From Massariosphaeria phaeospora (Eukaryota; Ascomycota; Dothideomycetes; Pleosporales), in contig JAADJZ010000007.1 in assembly GCA_011032825.1 (NCBI GenBank), positions 1 through 64,000 of the forward strand: a DNA stretch of 64,000 bases. Direction: 5' to 3'. The translations under genes and the position numbers were made by a program. The notes below the pieces were generated by a model. That model was not told where the DNA came from and did no database searches. It saw only the letters and a program-made list of their open reading frames with translations. Positions 54,893 through 63,433 of this stretch are shown piece by piece (position 1 is the stretch's first letter; each line of letters begins with the position of its first letter).

Positions 54893-57074
54893 ATGTCTTG
54901 GAGTGGGCCTGTGGCAGGTGCTGCACCATATCAAGCACCGCCCTACCCTAATGGGCAGCCAGGCTACGCTCAGCAGCCAAACTATCAATATGGCCAGCAA
55001 GCAATCTATACCCAGTATCCGCCTGGTCAGGCCTATCCCCAGAGTGGTCCGCCTCAAGTTTCTCAACGACCGCCAGACAATCGGTAAGTTGACCATGTTC
55101 CTAGAATCCCTGACTGCAAGGCCTCAATGATTATATCCACGGCATACTTATCAGATGATTATAGGCCGCCAAAGAAGAAGGGAAATCCCGTAATAACACG
55201 ATACCCTCCACCCCCAGGCTATCGTGGTCCTCAACCTCAACCTCAGCCTCAGCCTCAGCCTCAGGGCCCTTTCGCGAACAATCAGTATACCAACCCTTAC
55301 CAACCTCCTCAGCAAGCTTATCCACAAGGACCCCCAGCACCACCTAGCTATCCGATTCCAGGATATCCCGTTGCTCCTCCGACTCCAGCATACTCGCCAC
55401 AAGCTTACGGTCCGCCTCAGAACCCCCCTTATCCACAGGCTGGCCCACCACAGGCGCAGAGCTACCAGTGGCCTCAACCGGGTTATCCCCAAACTCAACC
55501 GTTCTCGCAGACTCCAACGTATCCGGTGAGTCAAGGTTACCCAGCTAGCAGTTACCAGGGCTATCCACCCCAGCCTGTTCCGGTAGACCCAAATTCACAA
55601 GTCTACGGTCAACCCCAAAACTGGCAACCACAAAATGCTCAAGCGGTATATCCTCCAAGTCAGCAATACAACGCGTACACCGCACCCACCAATGGTTCGT
55701 CTTTCTCCCAAGATCCTAATGCCACCCCCACGCCTACGTCAGCCCACCTCGTCATGCCACAAAGCACGGACCCGACGGCTCATCCGAATAGTTCCACGAG
55801 CGAACATAACCCCAATGAAAAGTCCGACCTGTTTCTTGCATCGGATGATTGGGACTTCGACTTTGATGGCGCAATCTGGCCGAAAGCAAACGAAGCCGTA
55901 GATCCCAACCTGAGTCTCGGTGTGATCATATGGCGACCCGCTAAACAAGTCACCCGGGCTCTACCTTCGACTTATGTGGAAGCAGAAGAACAGGCACTCA
56001 AACCAGCCGCTGAGAAACTAGGTAACGGCGAGTCTGTCTCGATATACTTTACCCTAGAGAATTCGCACGAGGCCTTCTTAGACGTGAGACAAACAGACGA
56101 GTGGGATAGGATAAAGGATGATCCAGTCTTCAGAGTGTTCACGGAGGAGGAGAGGACCCAACATCTCGTACCTGTCGAAGAGTGCATCGCTTTGCGCGAC
56201 CGTCCTGATGTGCCTGTAGAGCAGGGCAAGGAAGGTGAGGATCACGAAATGTTCGACCCGAATTGGAGCGTCATGGACAACCTTGAGAAAGCATTATCAG
56301 CTCAGAACGAAGACACGAAACTGCCAACAAGCCAAGAAAGTCGCCCATCAAGGCTTCAGACACAGGAGGATATCCTAGCGATGCTTGGGGTTACAGGGGC
56401 TCCAAAGCCACCTTCGAATGAACCCATACCATACAACTTGTTTCCGGCCGACAGTAAGACCTCGTCTTCGCTACCAGAGAAGCCTCCAGTACATCCAGGT
56501 ACCCAGTAAGTCACCTCCTTCGAATTGCTGACTGGTCTAATCATCTTCAGAATCTCCGTACATCCTGATCAACCACCCCAAAGGGCGAATTCACATGGTG
56601 GGCCTCATGACCCTACTCACGCGCCTGCGATTCAACGTCCGTATGGGTCCATATCGGGTTCCTACCACTCGCGCCCCCCACCACCTCCTCCGGAGAGCCA
56701 ACGGTACGATCCGTGGACCTCAGCCCCTCCGCAGAATGTTCCCACTGCACATACGTTTGACGGGTCACTCGAGAGTCCAACGCGCTCAGAAGGAAGTAAT
56801 CGAACGCTTGCTGGGTCAGACTTTGAGCCGGAGAAGCCGTCCAACGATATCGACGACGAAGCAACAGTGGCGGAACTTAAACGAAGCGACAGCTCCTTCT
56901 CGAGAAAGAGGAGTTACGAAGATACCGACCATGATGACGAGAGACCGAGGCAACAAGACAACCAAACAAGGCGCAAGAGGCGCTCGCAAGTAGCGGCTGC
57001 TTACAGGTATGACCCATGTGTCCTTGTCCGCATGATAAACGATTTCAAAACTAATTCGAACTAGCCGCCGTTGA
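54893..57074 (+). CDS. Pro/Gln/Tyr-rich unknown protein, 665 residues
   Basis: Exons 54893-55083, 55165-56505, 56551-57006 and 57065-57074 join in frame. The acceptor at 55164 (ATTATAG) is chosen because the earlier CAG at 55154 gives a stop. Residues 1-250 are low-complexity (PYPQ/YPQA, with a PQ hexanucleotide run at about 55229-55264). A probably ordered region follows (DWDFDFDGAIWPKANEAVD, SLGVIIWRPAKQVTRALPS, VSIYFTLENSHEAF, FRVFTEEERTQHLVPVEECI). The C-terminus is charged and ends with a basic stretch (NQTRRKRRSQVAAAYSRR), a likely nuclear signal. The last coding exon is only 10 bp. I do not recognise a named family. The tail suggests a nuclear, perhaps RNA- or transcription-linked protein, but that is inference. 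Confidence 0.78.
55229..55264 (+). repeat. Hexanucleotide CCTCAR tandem repeat in coding sequence
   Basis: Six consecutive CCTCAA/CCTCAG units encode a (Pro-Gln) run in the Pro/Gln-rich protein. Such runs commonly vary in copy number. Confidence 0.85.
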
Positions 57075-58222: not shown

Positions 58223-59696
58223 TTAGGCTTGCCATATAGACTCGATAATGGATAGCGAAGCGCCTTGCGGGTGGTAGAACTTCAAGGCGCCAAATCTTGG
58301 GTCGGCAGCTTTGAACAATGGCTCCCATTCCCCCTTCTCTCTTTCGCGTGAGTTATGCAGGCTAAGCATTACCATATCAACACCCCTAATCCGCGTTAAC
58401 CAAAGTTACTGACAGATATTATGGACTATGCTAAGTACTCACCGAATCGTTCTCTCCACATCATATGGTACAGTGTTTGGTCCCGGACAGATACTATCAT
58501 TCACAATGATCCGCGCTCCCGGCCGTAACACCGGAACCAGCTGCCGCAATATCTTGATCATATATTTGTCCGGCCAGTCATGGAAGATCCATCTGAAAAA
58601 GTAAACATCCGCAACTGTGCTCTGTTTTTCGAAGAAATCATGTCCATGGAGCTGGATGCGGTTGCTGAGATGTTCGGGGACCTGTGCATGGCGTAGTACG
58701 TCCGGAAGGTCCATGACGATCAAGTTCAGCTTCGGGAAAGCTTCTGCGAGCATGATGGCAATCTGGGCTTGCGAGCCTCCGACATCTACTACCGTGGCCG
58801 GACCTAGGGACTCCCAAGGATAGCCGTTAATAAGGAAGGAAGGTGAGTTGCCTGGGATGTCCGCTGTGAAGGATTTCATCGCGCCGCCGAACCTCTTTGC
58901 GTCTTCAGGGCGTGATGCAAGGTAAGAAAAGAGACCCTCATCCGTGTTGTGCGCGAGACAGAATCCCTTTGGAAGAAATCGTCTCGTCAGTCAATTTTCT
59001 CGTCCAGTCATGAAGAACAAATACTCACGGTTTGATTGGGCTCCTGGTCATCGAACTGCTGCAGCGCATCGACAGTCTATAGGAGTCAATCTTCAATCGA
59101 AATGTTAGGTTGATCTGAAGACCATACCCAAGCAAAGGAACGGTAGAACGTGTCGTGGATCAGACCTACGCCATCCATCGCAACCGGATTCTCAGCCAGC
59201 CATCTGGAAGTCGCTGAATGCGAAACGAACCCGTCGCGCTTCTCTTGGAACAAACGGTGGTAGGTGATAGCAAAGCGGATTATGCGTCGAAGGTCTGGTT
59301 CGTGGAGTCCGCATTTTTCAGCCAAGTCTTTGAACGATATCTCCCTGCCTAGCGGTACTTTTGCGGGAATGTCATAACGGTGTATGGCTTGAGCGCTTGT
59401 GGCGTTGGCCTAACATCGAAGGACGGATAAGTCTAGTATTGATGGTACGTGGCTACGCATCCACTTACCACTGGCCTCACTAGAGCCTTAGGCCCTTGGA
59501 GCAAGTCCAATAGCTCGTAACAGTTATTTATTGCCTCCCTACGAGCATTGTCGACTTCTTGGGAGTTGATTTGCAGGTCCACGGGACCGTCTTCGTCAAA
59601 AGATGGCTGAGGCAAGGAATGAGATTCAAGGTACTGCGATACTTTCTGTGTGTTGGTGTTGATGTGTTCAGCTAGTTCTTCGATTCTGGGTGGCAT
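58223..59696 (-). CDS. SAM-dependent O-methyltransferase (plant COMT/fungal OmtA-like)
   Basis: Exons 59696-59469, 59409-59128, 59076-59029, 58966-58443 and 58385-58223 give 414 residues. The N-terminal dimerisation/winged-helix part contains PLGREISFKDLAEKCG and IIRFAITYHRLFQE. The catalytic part has the SAM-binding turn VVDVGGSQAQ (245-254), VMDLPDVL and the general-base block FRWIFHDWPD (His315), then LRPGARIIVNDS. That order is standard for O-methyltransferase family 2. It is divergent from the UstYa-like gene at 60285 across 588 bp, so it is a candidate tailoring enzyme of the neighbouring RiPP-like pathway, perhaps on a phenol of a core Tyr; the substrate is inferred only from position. 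A TGACTCA word lies 2 bp upstream of its ATG. Confidence 0.9.
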
Positions 59697-60284
59697 TTTG
59701 ACTCAGTGAGCATGGAATTGGGTGGAAATGCTAAGTTATGATATCGACTATCTGGGTCCTGCTTCTAGGTGGTGAGAGGTGCTTCGATTGTTGCTTGTTG
59801 TGTTCAGTACGGCTACGGCTACGGTCGGGTACGGACACCGATCGCTGCATGTGCAGACTCGGGTAGTACGAAGTATGAGCGTGGCGTAGCATGTTCTCCG
59901 AACCGGGTTCATTGCATGCTTTTGCATATGCAGGATGCGATCCTTGTCTGAGGAAAGAGAACCGGGGTGCTGCGGGGTTGCATGCGTAGGGTTGCATGTG
60001 TTATACTGTTGAGGGGCGTTATGTGCTGGCTTTGAAGATAATGCGCACCTACATGGATCAGAAAGCATCGGTGTGCAGAGAAAGCATTGGTGTGCAGAGG
60101 TAAGCGAGCAATATGGCATACAGAAATCGGAAAACGGGGCCCAGTGACCGGTGCGAATTGGGTTGCAAACCGGATGTACGCGAGGAACAGTCGGTTGCTA
60201 AACGTCAAATCCGAGTACTTGTCAATCTGCTGAGATCTTTCTAAAGGAATATCGGAATCTCTATCTCCTCCAAAGCTATTCCAG
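59697..60284. promoter_or_regulatory. Divergent promoter of the O-methyltransferase and first UstYa-like gene
   Basis: It has TGACTCA at 59699-59705 (AP-1/Gcn4-type site) and a run of TACGG words at about 59809-59835. It also contains several ATGCAT/TGCATGC words and a duplicated AAAGCATYGGTGTGCAGAG segment (about 60062-60101). Function is inferred from position only. Confidence 0.45.
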
Positions 60285-61152
60285 ATGGCGGACTCAAGTC
60301 CACGTGCCTCTACCTCAGAAGAGGAAAATGAGAAGCTACTTCCAACAGATCTTCCAGTCATGTCGACCAGATTGAAGAAAACCAGTCATCTGGGTTCCGC
60401 GTTCTTGTACATCAGCATCGTTTTTGCCGTCCTTCTAGGATTTCTAGTCGGTTTTGGAGTAGCACGATATAGACCAGCTAGAATGGTGGACTTCGATATG
60501 TTAAATGCTGTTCCAAGGGGTGTGTTTCACCTCAACCGCACCCGGTTCCTTAAAACAACGTCTTACTCATAGTATAGTTCCTCTGAGCTACTCTGCTCGA
60601 ACATTTGTTCACGACGAACGATTCGCTGCTCTACCCCCAAAGAACGGTGAGGCAGAAAAAGTGTGGGACAGTTTACTTCCAAGTGAGACCACCGTCGTTG
60701 TTGTAACCTTGAACCTGTACTGACTTGCGAAGAGGGATTAGGTTATGTAAAGCATCCCAAATTTGCACCAGAGGATTCTACGGTGTCAGTCTTCCATCAA
60801 CTCCATTGTCTCGTGAGTAAGTTGTCCTGGAGTCTCGAGAAACAGAACTAACCGTGTTTGCTAGTATACTCTCCGCCGCATATTCTTTTCCAATTCGAAC
60901 AATGGGACACTAGAATCCTTTGATAATGGTGTCGAACGAACGGAACACGCGACTCATTGTTTCGAGTATATCCGACAGTCGCTAATGTGCTGTGCTGATT
61001 CAAGCATTGAGCCGCCAGAGCTCGTTGATGGGTTCCCGGGGTGGGATTTCCAGAGGACGTGCCGCGATTACCAGCAGTTGAAACATTGGGCCTCGAAGTG
61101 GCGTGCGAATGATCTGGAGGGTTTCATACTGAATCATGGCGCGGGTGTTTGA
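60285..61152 (+). CDS. UstYa-like (DUF3328) membrane-anchored oxidase, copy 1
   Basis: Exons 60285-60519, 60578-60682, 60733-60812 and 60865-61152 encode 235 residues. A cytosolic tail precedes one TM helix (about 38-60, SAFLYISIVFAVLLGFLVGF), then a lumenal domain with WDSLLP and the two family motifs HxxHC at 135-139 (HQLHC) and 168-172 (HATHC). UstYa/UstYb-type proteins oxidise and cyclise ribosomal peptides in ustiloxin, asperipin, phomopsin and victorin pathways. The intron-1 acceptor (60577) was chosen because the nearer AG at 60572 brings a stop. It converges on the precursor gene (340 bp) and shares a promoter region with the methyltransferase. No other catalytic domain is present. 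Confidence 0.92.
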
Positions 61153-61492
61153 TGGACATTTTATGAAGAAGCTGAAGAGAAATCTGTCGCGCGCGAAGAA
61201 ATAGCTTATTCGTTCTAGGTTATGGACAGCCGCCGCCGACGACAGCGTGCCATATATCCTTGTACTAGCTACGAGCTGAGGCAATACATGTTGTACCAAG
61301 ATAGTACAAGGCGTCTGGAAAGCAATTATAGTAGAAGAATCCGAGGCTTCAAAACTGTGCACATAACGTGGAAACATATATTGATTGCTTAATCAGCGAA
61401 TGACGTCATTTCACCGTCGGGGCTAACGACAGACGACACGAACACCACCTTCCCTCGAGATAGTTGACAGACAAACTTCCTCCCAGCAACCG
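61153..61492. other. Convergent 3' interval between UstYa-like copy 1 and the precursor gene
   Basis: No coding signal. Opposing transcripts may overlap here. Confidence 0.5.
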
Positions 61493-61913
61493 CTAGTACC
61501 CACGCCCAATGCCATCATAGTTTACTTCGTCCGCATCGTGGACGCGGGGAACCTCCGCATCAGCAGTTCGCTTGTAGCCACGTCCGATCCCATCGTAGTT
61601 CACCTCATCGGCAGCGTGGACGCGGGCAACTTCCACCTCAGCAGCGCGTTTATACCCACGTCCGATACCGTCATAATCGACTTCTTTCGCAGTATGGACG
61701 CGAGGGACGTCGGCCTCCCTCTTATATCCTCGTCCGATGCCATCATAGTTCACTTCTTCGGCGGAGTGAACGCGGGCAACTGCGCTGTTTCCATGGGGAT
61801 CTAAACAGTTCAGAAGCATGTCCAACCAATTCATTTTCACCGCACATACCAGGAACAGGTACTGCTACCGTTACAGTGAGGAAGGTGACGAGGGCGTTAA
61901 GCTTGATGTGCAT
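61493..61913 (-). CDS. Secreted repeat precursor peptide with Kex2-processed cores (candidate RiPP/dikaritin-like precursor)
   Basis: Exons 61913-61850 and 61800-61493 flank a 49-bp GT-AG intron (branch CTGAAC); 123 residues. A signal peptide (MHIKLNALVTFLTVTVAVPV) is followed by four repeats of 24-28 residues. Each repeat ends in a core: NYDGIGRGY three times and DYDGIGRGY once. The first three are followed by Lys-Arg, the Kex2 site; the last is followed by the stop codon. Spacers are also repeated (VHxAxEV). This layout is that of UstA-type and other Kex2-processed repeat (KEP) precursors, where DUF3328 enzymes cyclise the released core. The neighbours support that. The core is unlike the ustiloxin, phomopsin or asperipin cores I know. 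An in-frame ATG at 61982 exists, but it would bury the signal peptide. Confidence 0.88.
61496..61750 (-). repeat. Four in-frame repeats encoding the peptide core
   Basis: The 27-bp cores lie at 61724-61750 (core 1), 61652-61678 (core 2, starts with Asp), 61574-61600 (core 3) and 61496-61522 (core 4). Spacings are 72, 78 and 78 bp. Lys-Arg codons follow at 61718-61723, 61646-61651 and 61568-61573. Confidence 0.95.
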
Positions 61914-62521
61914 TATCGCTCGATGTGGGGTTGTTGTCGGGGTGAGTTTTGTTGATAATCGAGTACTGTAGGAGTTTATCAATTGAACGAAGACTTTGTA
62001 GTTCGTACTAGAACCATAGTCCCATTCATTGCCCTCCCTCTTCTAGGACTACTACGTCCTTGGCTATCTGGGTCTGCATATGGAGCGTCAATTTAATTGT
62101 AGGCAAATTATGCAATGCATACAGTCCTCCAGGTATGTCCCCTTCTTACTCATAATCCGCGCTAAATGATAGAGTGTAGGTGCCGAGGGTTACTATCGGA
62201 GCCCGATGATATCCAGTGATCATCCAGGACAATCATGCAGTCAAACAGTGACCCCTCCTGCTTGCTTGGCTGCATCGAGAATGCAACCAGACAATCACAC
62301 GGTGCCGGGGGCTAGCGAGTAATTCCATAGGTCCTAGGGAGTCATGGTAGGTCTCCTCTTGACTCCCACGAACTTTAACTCAACTAGAAACTGCTTAGCA
62401 CCGCAGACTCCCGCAGCAGCAAGTTCTGCGATCTCTTCTAGTATTAAAGCGCAGACGCATGCCTGAGCTCTACAATTCATCGCACAGGCTGTTCTTCTCT
62501 CGCCATCAATCGACACTCGAT
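61914..62521. promoter_or_regulatory. Divergent promoter of the precursor and second UstYa-like gene
   Basis: A 608-bp interval with an 8-bp inverted repeat GGGAGTCA (62337-62344) and TGACTCCC (62360-62367) carrying two TGACTC half-sites. A similar TGACTCA lies before the methyltransferase. Binding is not shown. Confidence 0.45.
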
Positions 62522-63433
62522 ATGAAGCTTCCGCAATTCGGCTTTGGATTCCTCACGGGGCAGCCATCATACCACTCTGTTGAACAAGGAGAGTTTCTTT
62601 TGAGTGGAGAGAAACCTGCGAACCCTCAAGCACACCGAAACACTTATTTGAGCGGCTCTTGGAAGAGTGCTTGTCTGCTGTTACTCCTCTGTACTAACGT
62701 CGTCACCATTGTTGGCTTATTGTGGTCACCCGGTGGTCAAGAAGGGATCCCTGAAGTTTATGGTACGTAAAACTGACATCTTTCCAACGATATCTGCGGT
62801 GTTAACAAATGAGTAGCGAAGGTTGATTCCATCAAGACCACCTGGACAAAATTTTGGTGGTGGACGGAGTACAGCGATTCTAACCACACTACGACGAATG
62901 AGCTATGGGACGCCATTCTCCCATCCCATGGTTTTGTCGCCATGGATCTCCAGTGGGCTGCTGGGCGAAACTGGCCAGAGACGATGAGACTTCCGAGTGA
63001 TCCTTCCAAAGGAGTCTACCTGCTAGAAGCATACCATCAGCTGCATTGCCTGGTATACTAGTCTCGGATAAAATATCATGGGTTATGCAGGCTGACATTT
63101 TCCTAGCGAATGATACGCAAGACGTTCTGGGAAGCTTACACAAGGAAGCCTTATACCTACCAGCCTTCTCCACATTTCGAACATTGCTTCGATACCCTCC
63201 GGCAGGCTATTATGTGCAACGCTGATAATACCCCACTCTACACATTCGGGGACAATACCGCAGGGGATGGACAGCTTCACAGATGCCACAACTGGGATGA
63301 GTTGCGTGTTTTCGCCACAGAGAACACAGCATGTTATCGCGATACCATCGAGGATGTCTTATTGAAGGAGCATTTCGGCTTCTGTGATGACGGTTCAGAC
63401 GGTCTTCACTGGGCAGAAGATTCCGAAATGTAA
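62522..63433 (+). CDS. UstYa-like (DUF3328) membrane-anchored oxidase, copy 2
   Basis: Exons 62522-62762, 62817-63052 and 63107-63433 encode 267 residues. One TM helix (about 48-67, KSACLLLLLCTNVVTIVGLL) follows a 47-residue cytosolic tail. The lumenal domain has NELWDAILPSHGFVAMD, then HQLHC (154-158) and HFEHC (182-186), the paired HxxHC motifs of the family. The C-terminal part is Cys- and Trp-containing (TPLYTFGDN, QLHRCHNWDELR), as in UstYa/UstYb. An ATG at 62459 in the same frame would add 21 residues, and either is possible. It is divergent from the precursor gene, which suggests co-expression. It is clearly not a recent copy of the first UstYa-like gene: outside the motifs the two differ widely. 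Confidence 0.92.

What the first reader, a model, noticed from the sequence alone, without database searches (positions are those of the whole stretch)
58223..63433. Candidate undescribed fungal RiPP (dikaritin-like) gene cluster
Seen: a secreted repeat precursor with Kex2 sites lies between two DUF3328/UstYa-type proteins with intact paired HxxHC motifs, next to an O-methyltransferase, all within 5.2 kb. Known: precursor plus UstYa-type enzymes define the ustiloxin/phomopsin/asperipin/victorin type of cyclic peptides. Inference: the cluster makes a cyclised, perhaps methylated peptide. No tyrosinase, flavin monooxygenase, peptidase or exporter is in view, so the cluster may be minimal or continue to the right.
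Basis: partly seen in the sequence, partly recalled or inferred. Interest (0 to 1): 0.95.

Follow-up and report, generated by a model that had tools for sequence, protein, structure and literature searches.

The report
Fungal cyclic-peptide (RiPP) gene cluster
A fungus carries an intact, compact set of genes that probably makes an unknown ring-shaped peptide from a repeated precursor protein, and it may show what kind of precursor to look for in similar gene clusters of lichen fungi, where none has been found.

Summary
The window is the start of a 1.77-Mb contig, by protein identity Massariosphaeria phaeospora. The four genes are intact: an O-methyltransferase-family gene, two UstYa (PF11807) genes with two HxxHC motifs each, and a 123-aa precursor with four copies of V[N/D]YDGIGRGY, three followed by KR. 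The copies are nearly saturated with silent differences (pS 0.87) but almost invariant in protein (pN 0.022), so the peptide is under selection. A tyrosinase lies 3.7 kb past UstYa2, outside the window (C49:67094-68575; PF00264, 133 bits). The cluster therefore has the ustiloxin ring-forming set: precursor, tyrosinase and two UstYa proteins. One lichen (Alectoria) contig appears to carry homologues of both UstYa genes and the tyrosinase. This resembles the published lichen 'Clan R1', for which no repeat precursor was found (PMC12048977). Best reading: a new dikaritin-like RiPP cluster with an undescribed core, making a Tyr-crosslinked, perhaps O-methylated peptide. No product has been shown.

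The parts
58223..59696 (-). O-methyltransferase-family gene (414 aa; exons 59696-59469, 59409-59128, 59076-59029, 58966-58443, 58385-58223)
   Evidence: PF00891 85.6 bits; gene model; solved-structure matches
60285..61153 (+). UstYa1 (235 aa; exons 60285-60519, 60578-60682, 60733-60812, 60865-61153), N-terminal membrane anchor, HxxHC at residues 135 and 168
   Evidence: PF11807 80.2 bits; model; relatives support the splicing; the public model P0001 is 160 aa and lacks the second HxxHC
61493..61913 (-). Precursor (123 aa; exons 61913-61850 and 61800-61493): hydrophobic secretion-type N-terminus and four repeats V[A/P]RVHxA[E/D/K]E-V[N/D]YDGIGRGY, the first three followed by KR
   Evidence: single copy in the genome; no database match
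62522..63433 (+). UstYa2 (267 aa; exons 62522-62762, 62817-63052, 63107-63433), N-terminal membrane anchor, HxxHC at residues 154 and 182
   Evidence: PF11807 81.7 bits; model; identical to public protein P0059

Best explanation
A compact dikaritin-like (ustiloxin-type) RiPP cluster. Shown by sequence: an intact secretory-type precursor with four near-identical Tyr/Ile-containing cores at Kex2 sites, two UstYa-type proteins, a tyrosinase 3.7 kb further right, and an O-methyltransferase-family gene, with housekeeping genes on both sides. Inferred mechanism: the precursor enters the ER and Golgi; Kex2 cuts after each KR, leaving 22-24-residue pieces made of a conserved, perhaps recognition, part (V[A/P]RVHxA[E/D/K]E) and a core (V[N/D]YDGIGRGY). 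The membrane-anchored tyrosinase oxidises Tyr to a catechol, and the two UstYa oxidases close an ether or other side-chain bond from that Tyr, most likely to Ile three residues on (Y-D-G-I) and possibly also involving the C-terminal Tyr. Unknown proteases trim the ends. The methyltransferase, which shows no membrane anchor or secretion signal, may cap a phenol oxygen late in the pathway.
For: PF11807 on both UstYa proteins with paired HxxHC motifs. Tyrosinase PF00264, 132.6 bits. Cores pS 0.87 against pN 0.022 over six pairs. N-terminal hydrophobic segments on UstYa1, UstYa2 and the tyrosinase, none on the methyltransferase. Tyrosinase matches fall at 16 or more places in this 42-Mb genome (my merging of 29 matches), so one within 10 kb either side of a given spot is expected by chance in about 1% of cases. 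An Alectoria contig (length 127,132, by equal length and neighbouring locus tags) holds homologues of UstYa1, tyrosinase (48% over 234 aa) and UstYa2. In ustiloxin, ustQ, ustYa and ustYb are essential for the first cyclic intermediate and gave it as sole product in A. oryzae (passages of PMC6514808).
Against: No expression or product data exist here. The core is not the YxI(G/P) of ustiloxin and phomopsin. No peptidase, exporter, regulator, P450 or FMO was recognised among the frames scanned in the cluster (not exhaustive); an MFS-type frame starts only at about 83 kb, behind housekeeping genes, and no S41 peptidase match lies on this contig. No DNA word shared between the cluster's intergenic regions clearly exceeded shuffles. 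UstYa proteins also serve non-RiPP pathways (PMC12048977). The AlphaFold model of UstYa2 is poor (pLDDT 60), so the active site could not be checked.
Confidence: 0.85

Rival explanations
1. The repeat protein is a precursor of an unmodified secreted signalling peptide (pheromone-like), and the UstYa genes beside it serve something else.
For: Some Kex2-processed repeat proteins are linear signals, and 6120 of 7878 surveyed had no DUF3328 gene among the 15 nearest genes (PMC7329392, passages). A Fung_rhodopsin (PF20684) membrane-protein gene lies between UstYa2 and the tyrosinase and could be a sensor.
Against: The precursor sits directly between two UstYa genes with a tyrosinase nearby. Every core holds two Tyr. 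In the same survey pheromone-type precursors lack DUF3328 neighbours with three exceptions.
Confidence: 0.08
2. Asperipin-like chemistry: the UstYa proteins close Tyr-to-beta-carbon ethers directly; the tyrosinase and methyltransferase are chance neighbours.
For: Asperipin-2a is made with one UstYa homologue from a four-gene cluster without tyrosinase, and its core FYYTGY has a Tyr at the C-terminal end, somewhat like NYDGIGRGY.
Against: Two UstYa genes of two different clades plus a tyrosinase match the ustiloxin set. No reductase or transporter was recognised in the cluster. The UstYa1-tyrosinase neighbourhood recurs in Alectoria.
Confidence: 0.15
3. A decayed or silent cluster that makes nothing.
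For: The public records are poor: the UstYa1 model is truncated (P0001), and the precursor was not found in the protein database. No expression data were available.
Against: All five coding frames are open with ordinary introns. The cores show strong constraint despite near-saturated silent change. HxxHC motifs are intact. The faults lie in annotation, not in the DNA.
Confidence: 0.07

Closest known systems
Ustiloxin B cluster (Aspergillus flavus), dikaritin
   Same: Multicore Kex2 precursor, two UstYa-type proteins and a tyrosinase; the latter three give the first cyclic intermediate. Tyr and Ile lie in the core.
   Different: Core YDGIG in place of YAIG (Tyr-Ile spacing +3, not +2), a second, C-terminal Tyr, four repeats not 16, a PF00891 O-methyltransferase-family gene; no FMO, P450 or PLP enzyme recognised among the frames scanned.
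Lichen 'Clan R1' RiPP clusters of Parmeliaceae (PMC12048977)
   Same: Two DUF3328 genes in two clades, tyrosinase and O-methyltransferase. Named matches of UstYa1 and UstYa2 include Parmeliaceae (Usnea, Alectoria, Imshaugia; family recalled).
   Different: The paper found no repeat precursor there, only some genes with signal peptides and Kex2 sites but no repeats, and raises a single-core precursor or one outside the cluster. Gene order differs. Clan R1 has an FGE-sulfatase gene; the only PF03781 match in this genome lies on another contig.
Phomopsin cluster
   Same: Multicore precursor with KR sites, DUF3328 proteins, tyrosinase.
   Different: Core YVIP, five DUF3328 genes and a methyltransferase acting on the N-terminal amine, against YDGIG, two DUF3328 genes and an O-methyltransferase-family gene here.
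Asperipin-2a cluster
   Same: Small cluster; core with a Tyr at the C-terminal end.
   Different: One UstYa homologue, a reductase and a transporter; no tyrosinase or O-methyltransferase among its four genes.

Membership tests
Dikaritin / ustiloxin-type RiPP | Precursor with secretion signal and repeated cores at Kex2 sites | tested here: met
   Four cores, three followed by KR, the last at the C-terminus. The signal was judged by hydropathy only.
Dikaritin / ustiloxin-type RiPP | DUF3328/UstYa protein near the precursor, with HxxHC motifs | tested here: met
   Two flanking genes, PF11807 80.2 and 81.7 bits, two HxxHC motifs each
Dikaritin / ustiloxin-type RiPP | Side-chain cyclised product | not testable with these tools
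   No metabolite data
Ustiloxin/phomopsin subtype | Tyrosinase in the cluster | tested here: met
   C49:67094-68575, PF00264 132.6 bits
Ustiloxin/phomopsin subtype | Core motif Y-x-I-(G/P) | tested here: not met
   Core is Y-D-G-I-G in all four copies
Lichen Clan R1 | Two DUF3328 genes from two clades, tyrosinase, O-methyltransferase | tested here: met
   The match is at the level of gene content and UstYa homology; Clan R1 sequences themselves were not at hand.
Lichen Clan R1 | FGE-sulfatase accessory gene | tested here: not met
   The only PF03781 match in the genome is on contig C3
Lichen Clan R1 | Grouping by BiG-SCAPE gene-cluster network | not tested
   Tool and lichen contigs not available here
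Asperipin-2a type | Single UstYa homologue with reductase and transporter | tested here: not met
   Two UstYa genes. No reductase or transporter was recognised between 58 and 69 kb, though not every frame was scanned.

The most novel reading that the evidence does not exclude
This locus supplies the missing precursor type for a family of UstYa-pair + tyrosinase + O-methyltransferase clusters that runs from Dothideomycetes to lichen-forming Parmeliaceae. Its product is a new dikaritin scaffold: a Tyr/catechol-to-Ile macrocycle with one residue more in the ring than ustiloxin, possibly a second ring through the C-terminal Tyr, and O-methylation of the catechol. The neighbouring PF20684 membrane protein may be a sensor for the peptide.
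Probability: 0.3. Interest if true: 0.75.

Novelty: new variant of a known kind. Interest (0 to 1): 0.6.

Why it matters
Lichen fungi carry clusters with this enzyme set but no known precursor, so their products cannot be predicted. An intact cluster in a non-lichen fungus (lifestyle recalled) with a clear repeat precursor and a constrained core gives a concrete peptide to look for, exact masses to test, and a template (conserved VxRVHxAxE stretch plus core before KR) for searching the lichen clusters. It also tests whether PF00891 methyltransferases act in dikaritin pathways; the lichen survey states O-methyltransferases had never been reported in dikaritin clusters. It further shows a blind spot: the precursor was absent from the protein database searched and one UstYa gene is truncated in its public record, so mining based on annotated proteins would miss or misread this cluster.

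Tried and rejected
Precursor homologues: none at E <= 10 in the protein database (484 candidates shared words). Relatives' DNA: a scan of viral contigs with the UstYa2 alignment gave 37 pattern matches and 0 relatives. Structure of UstYa2: low confidence (pLDDT 60.0, pTM 0.36), not used further. No solved structure matches the UstYa2 profile at E <= 1. Shared intergenic DNA words: three 8-mers in 3 of 4 regions against a shuffled mean of 1.46 (maximum 5), none longer. S41 peptidase and FGE-sulfatase near the cluster: none. Rfam: 0 matches in the window. 'The OMT-like gene is a pericyclase, not a methyltransferase': its best solved matches are 7bqj ('Methyltransf_2 domain-containing protein') and 7bqo (HpiI), which I recall as PdxI/HpiI-type pericyclases. 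The query keeps the HDW of the methyltransferase MmcR where those two have HKE, so methylation is preferred; not settled. 'Chance repeats': rejected by the control scan and the silent/replacement contrast. My first splice models of UstYa1 broke the frame; the acceptor was corrected and relatives support it. The tree is the quick one: the careful search was not finished; it holds 97 of the 126 found proteins (180 aa or longer, P0001 left out, P0020 cut to its first 130 residues) plus UstYa1; several long branches were flagged; the groups were named from the searches that found the rows.
Full report
Place. The window is bases 1-64000 of contig C49 (1,770,767 bases) of a 42-Mb genome, so contig numbers equal window numbers. 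A public protein identical to UstYa2 and one matching UstYa1 (95% identity, 63% of the query) are named Massariosphaeria phaeospora, both with contig length 1,770,767. I therefore take this to be that fungus (inference). Four papers in the held library name it (listing only; none opened).

Genes in the window. Methyltransferase, minus, 59696-58223, five exons, 414 aa, PF00891 85.6 bits. UstYa1, plus, 60285-61153, four exons, 235 aa; precursor, minus, 61913-61493, two exons, 123 aa; UstYa2, plus, 62522-63433, three exons, 267 aa. All frames are open. Both UstYa proteins match PF11807 over its cut-off, have one N-terminal hydrophobic segment and two HxxHC motifs. In alignments of 18 (UstYa2) and 17 (UstYa1) sequences these His and Cys positions are invariant. 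The public record of UstYa1 (P0001, 160 aa) splices the last intron differently, changes frame and ends without the second HxxHC; its relatives support the form used here.

Precursor. It reads: hydrophobic start, then four units of V[A/P]RVHxA[E/D/K]E followed by V[N/D]YDGIGRGY; units one to three end in KR and the fourth ends the protein. Cutting after KR gives pieces of 22-24 residues (KR not counted) after the first. Between the four cores silent sites differ at 0.87 and replacement sites at 0.022, summed over six pairs; in the nine codons before the core the values are 0.56 and 0.157. The copies are thus old and the core is held by selection, the stretch before it less strictly. The gene is single-copy. 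The scan for three or more similar ten-residue stretches before [KR]R found it. It found 0 in 108 kb of the same contig (window 1-58000 and L010-L014) and 1 in 13 loci around other UstYa genes. The scan does not handle introns.

Beyond the window. A tyrosinase gene lies at 67094-68575, plus, four exons, 368 aa, seen by eye and confirmed by PF00264 at 132.6 bits. It has an N-terminal hydrophobic segment and ends about 54 residues after the Pfam domain. Between UstYa2 and the tyrosinase lies a PF20684 (Fung_rhodopsin) membrane-protein gene, about 64550-66067, not fully modelled. Next come a SUMO-like gene, Nup84, MCM6 and GDA1/CD39. An MFS-type frame starts at about 83 kb and a cation-transporting ATPase at about 90 kb. 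To the left are uridine kinase/UPRTase and a phosphatase, then a 460-aa proline-rich frame at 55127-56509 with no Pfam match. The cluster is thus probably bounded at about 58.2-68.6 kb. On the right I scanned 20 of the 160 frames of 100 aa or more listed, and a few more later, so a further small gene could be missed. Tyrosinase matches fall at 16 or more places in the genome (29 matches, merged by me). One within 10 kb either side of a given spot would be expected by chance in about 1% of cases.

Relatives. UstYa1 gave 58 and UstYa2 68 matches at E <= 0.001. The two sets separate in a quick tree of 98 rows (support 97 for the 22 UstYa1-like rows, 99 for the 52 UstYa2-like rows; 24 weaker UstYa1 hits fall outside); the row groups came from the searches, so this checks separation and is not an independent discovery. 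Both clades hold Usnea, Alectoria, Viridothelium virens and an unnamed ENA contig. By equal contig length (an inference), three other contigs carry both: V. virens (533,224), ENA (21,797) and Alectoria sarmentosa (127,132). On the Alectoria contig one predicted protein (P0020) runs from a UstYa1-like into a tyrosinase domain, perhaps two genes merged by annotation. Its tyrosinase part is 48% identical to ours over 234 aa, and the next locus tag (P0106) is UstYa2-like. So the pair plus tyrosinase appears conserved from this fungus to a lichen. No methyltransferase or precursor homologue in relatives was examined.

Literature. I read the abstract, the Results, part 1 of 2 of the Discussion and the precursor method section of PMC12048977. 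[quoted passage not shown] It reports that no conserved repeated regions were found in either clan, though some clusters have genes with signal peptides and Kex2 sites; it raises a single-core precursor or one outside the cluster, which would count against a repeat precursor there. It states that O-methyltransferases had never been reported in dikaritin clusters. Its main text does not name Alectoria, Usnea or Imshaugia, so the link of our relatives to Clan R1 rests on family and gene content. From passages of PMC6514808: ustQ, ustYa and ustYb give the first cyclic ustiloxin intermediate; asperipin-2a uses one UstYa homologue. From passages of PMC7329392: 1758 of 7878 Kex2 repeat proteins lie near DUF3328 genes; tyrosinase genes total 341 among the 15 nearest genes; ustiloxin and phomopsin cores are YAIG, YVIG and YVIP. 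From a reference list only: a 2025 title reports a copper-dependent DUF3328 macrocyclase; the paper itself was not held. Passages of PMC9233826 agree on Tyr-Ile linkage. Searches behind the statement that this core is not in the held library: (core strings, 0 papers); related topic searches were seen as listings.

Mechanism. Shown: gene content, intact motifs, constrained cores, N-terminal anchors on UstYa1, UstYa2 and tyrosinase by hydropathy. Inferred: secretion, Kex2 cutting, Tyr oxidation by the tyrosinase, side-chain ring closure by the UstYa pair, most likely Tyr to Ile. The methyltransferase shows no membrane or secretion segment, so it would act outside the secretory lumen, on a late intermediate. 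Its best solved matches, 7bqj and 7bqo, are as I recall pericyclases of the methyltransferase fold, but it keeps the HDW motif of the methyltransferase MmcR where those have HKE.

Verdict. The cluster is a new variant of the dikaritin kind: known enzyme set, undescribed core with different Tyr-Ile spacing, and a methyltransferase family not yet tied, per the lichen survey, to a characterised dikaritin. Its main value is as a candidate key to the precursor-less lichen clusters; that link is by homology of enzymes, not yet by a precursor found in lichens.

Noticed in passing
L029 2483-2755 (-), i.e. G000:C33:21182-21454: A second Kex2 repeat protein in the same genome (four units of SDSDEVVGNLWH[A/E]K plus an acidic tail, the first three followed by KR) about 2 kb from a UstYa gene at C33:23321-23879: another candidate RiPP locus with a Trp/His core and no Tyr.
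   Followed up: partly
G000:C18:197058-215370: Tyrosinase matches and a UstYa match lie about 18 kb apart on contig C18: possibly another UstYa-tyrosinase neighbourhood.
   Followed up: no
C49:64550-66067 (just right of the window): A PF20684 (fungal rhodopsin domain) membrane-protein gene lies between UstYa2 and the tyrosinase; role unknown, possibly sensor, transport-related or incidental.
   Followed up: partly
window 60285-61153 and 61493-61913: The public gene model of UstYa1 is spliced differently at the last intron and loses the second HxxHC motif (P0001), and the precursor was not found in the protein database.
   Followed up: yes
P0020: An Alectoria protein record joins a UstYa domain to a tyrosinase domain; either a merged annotation or a real fusion enzyme.
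   Followed up: partly
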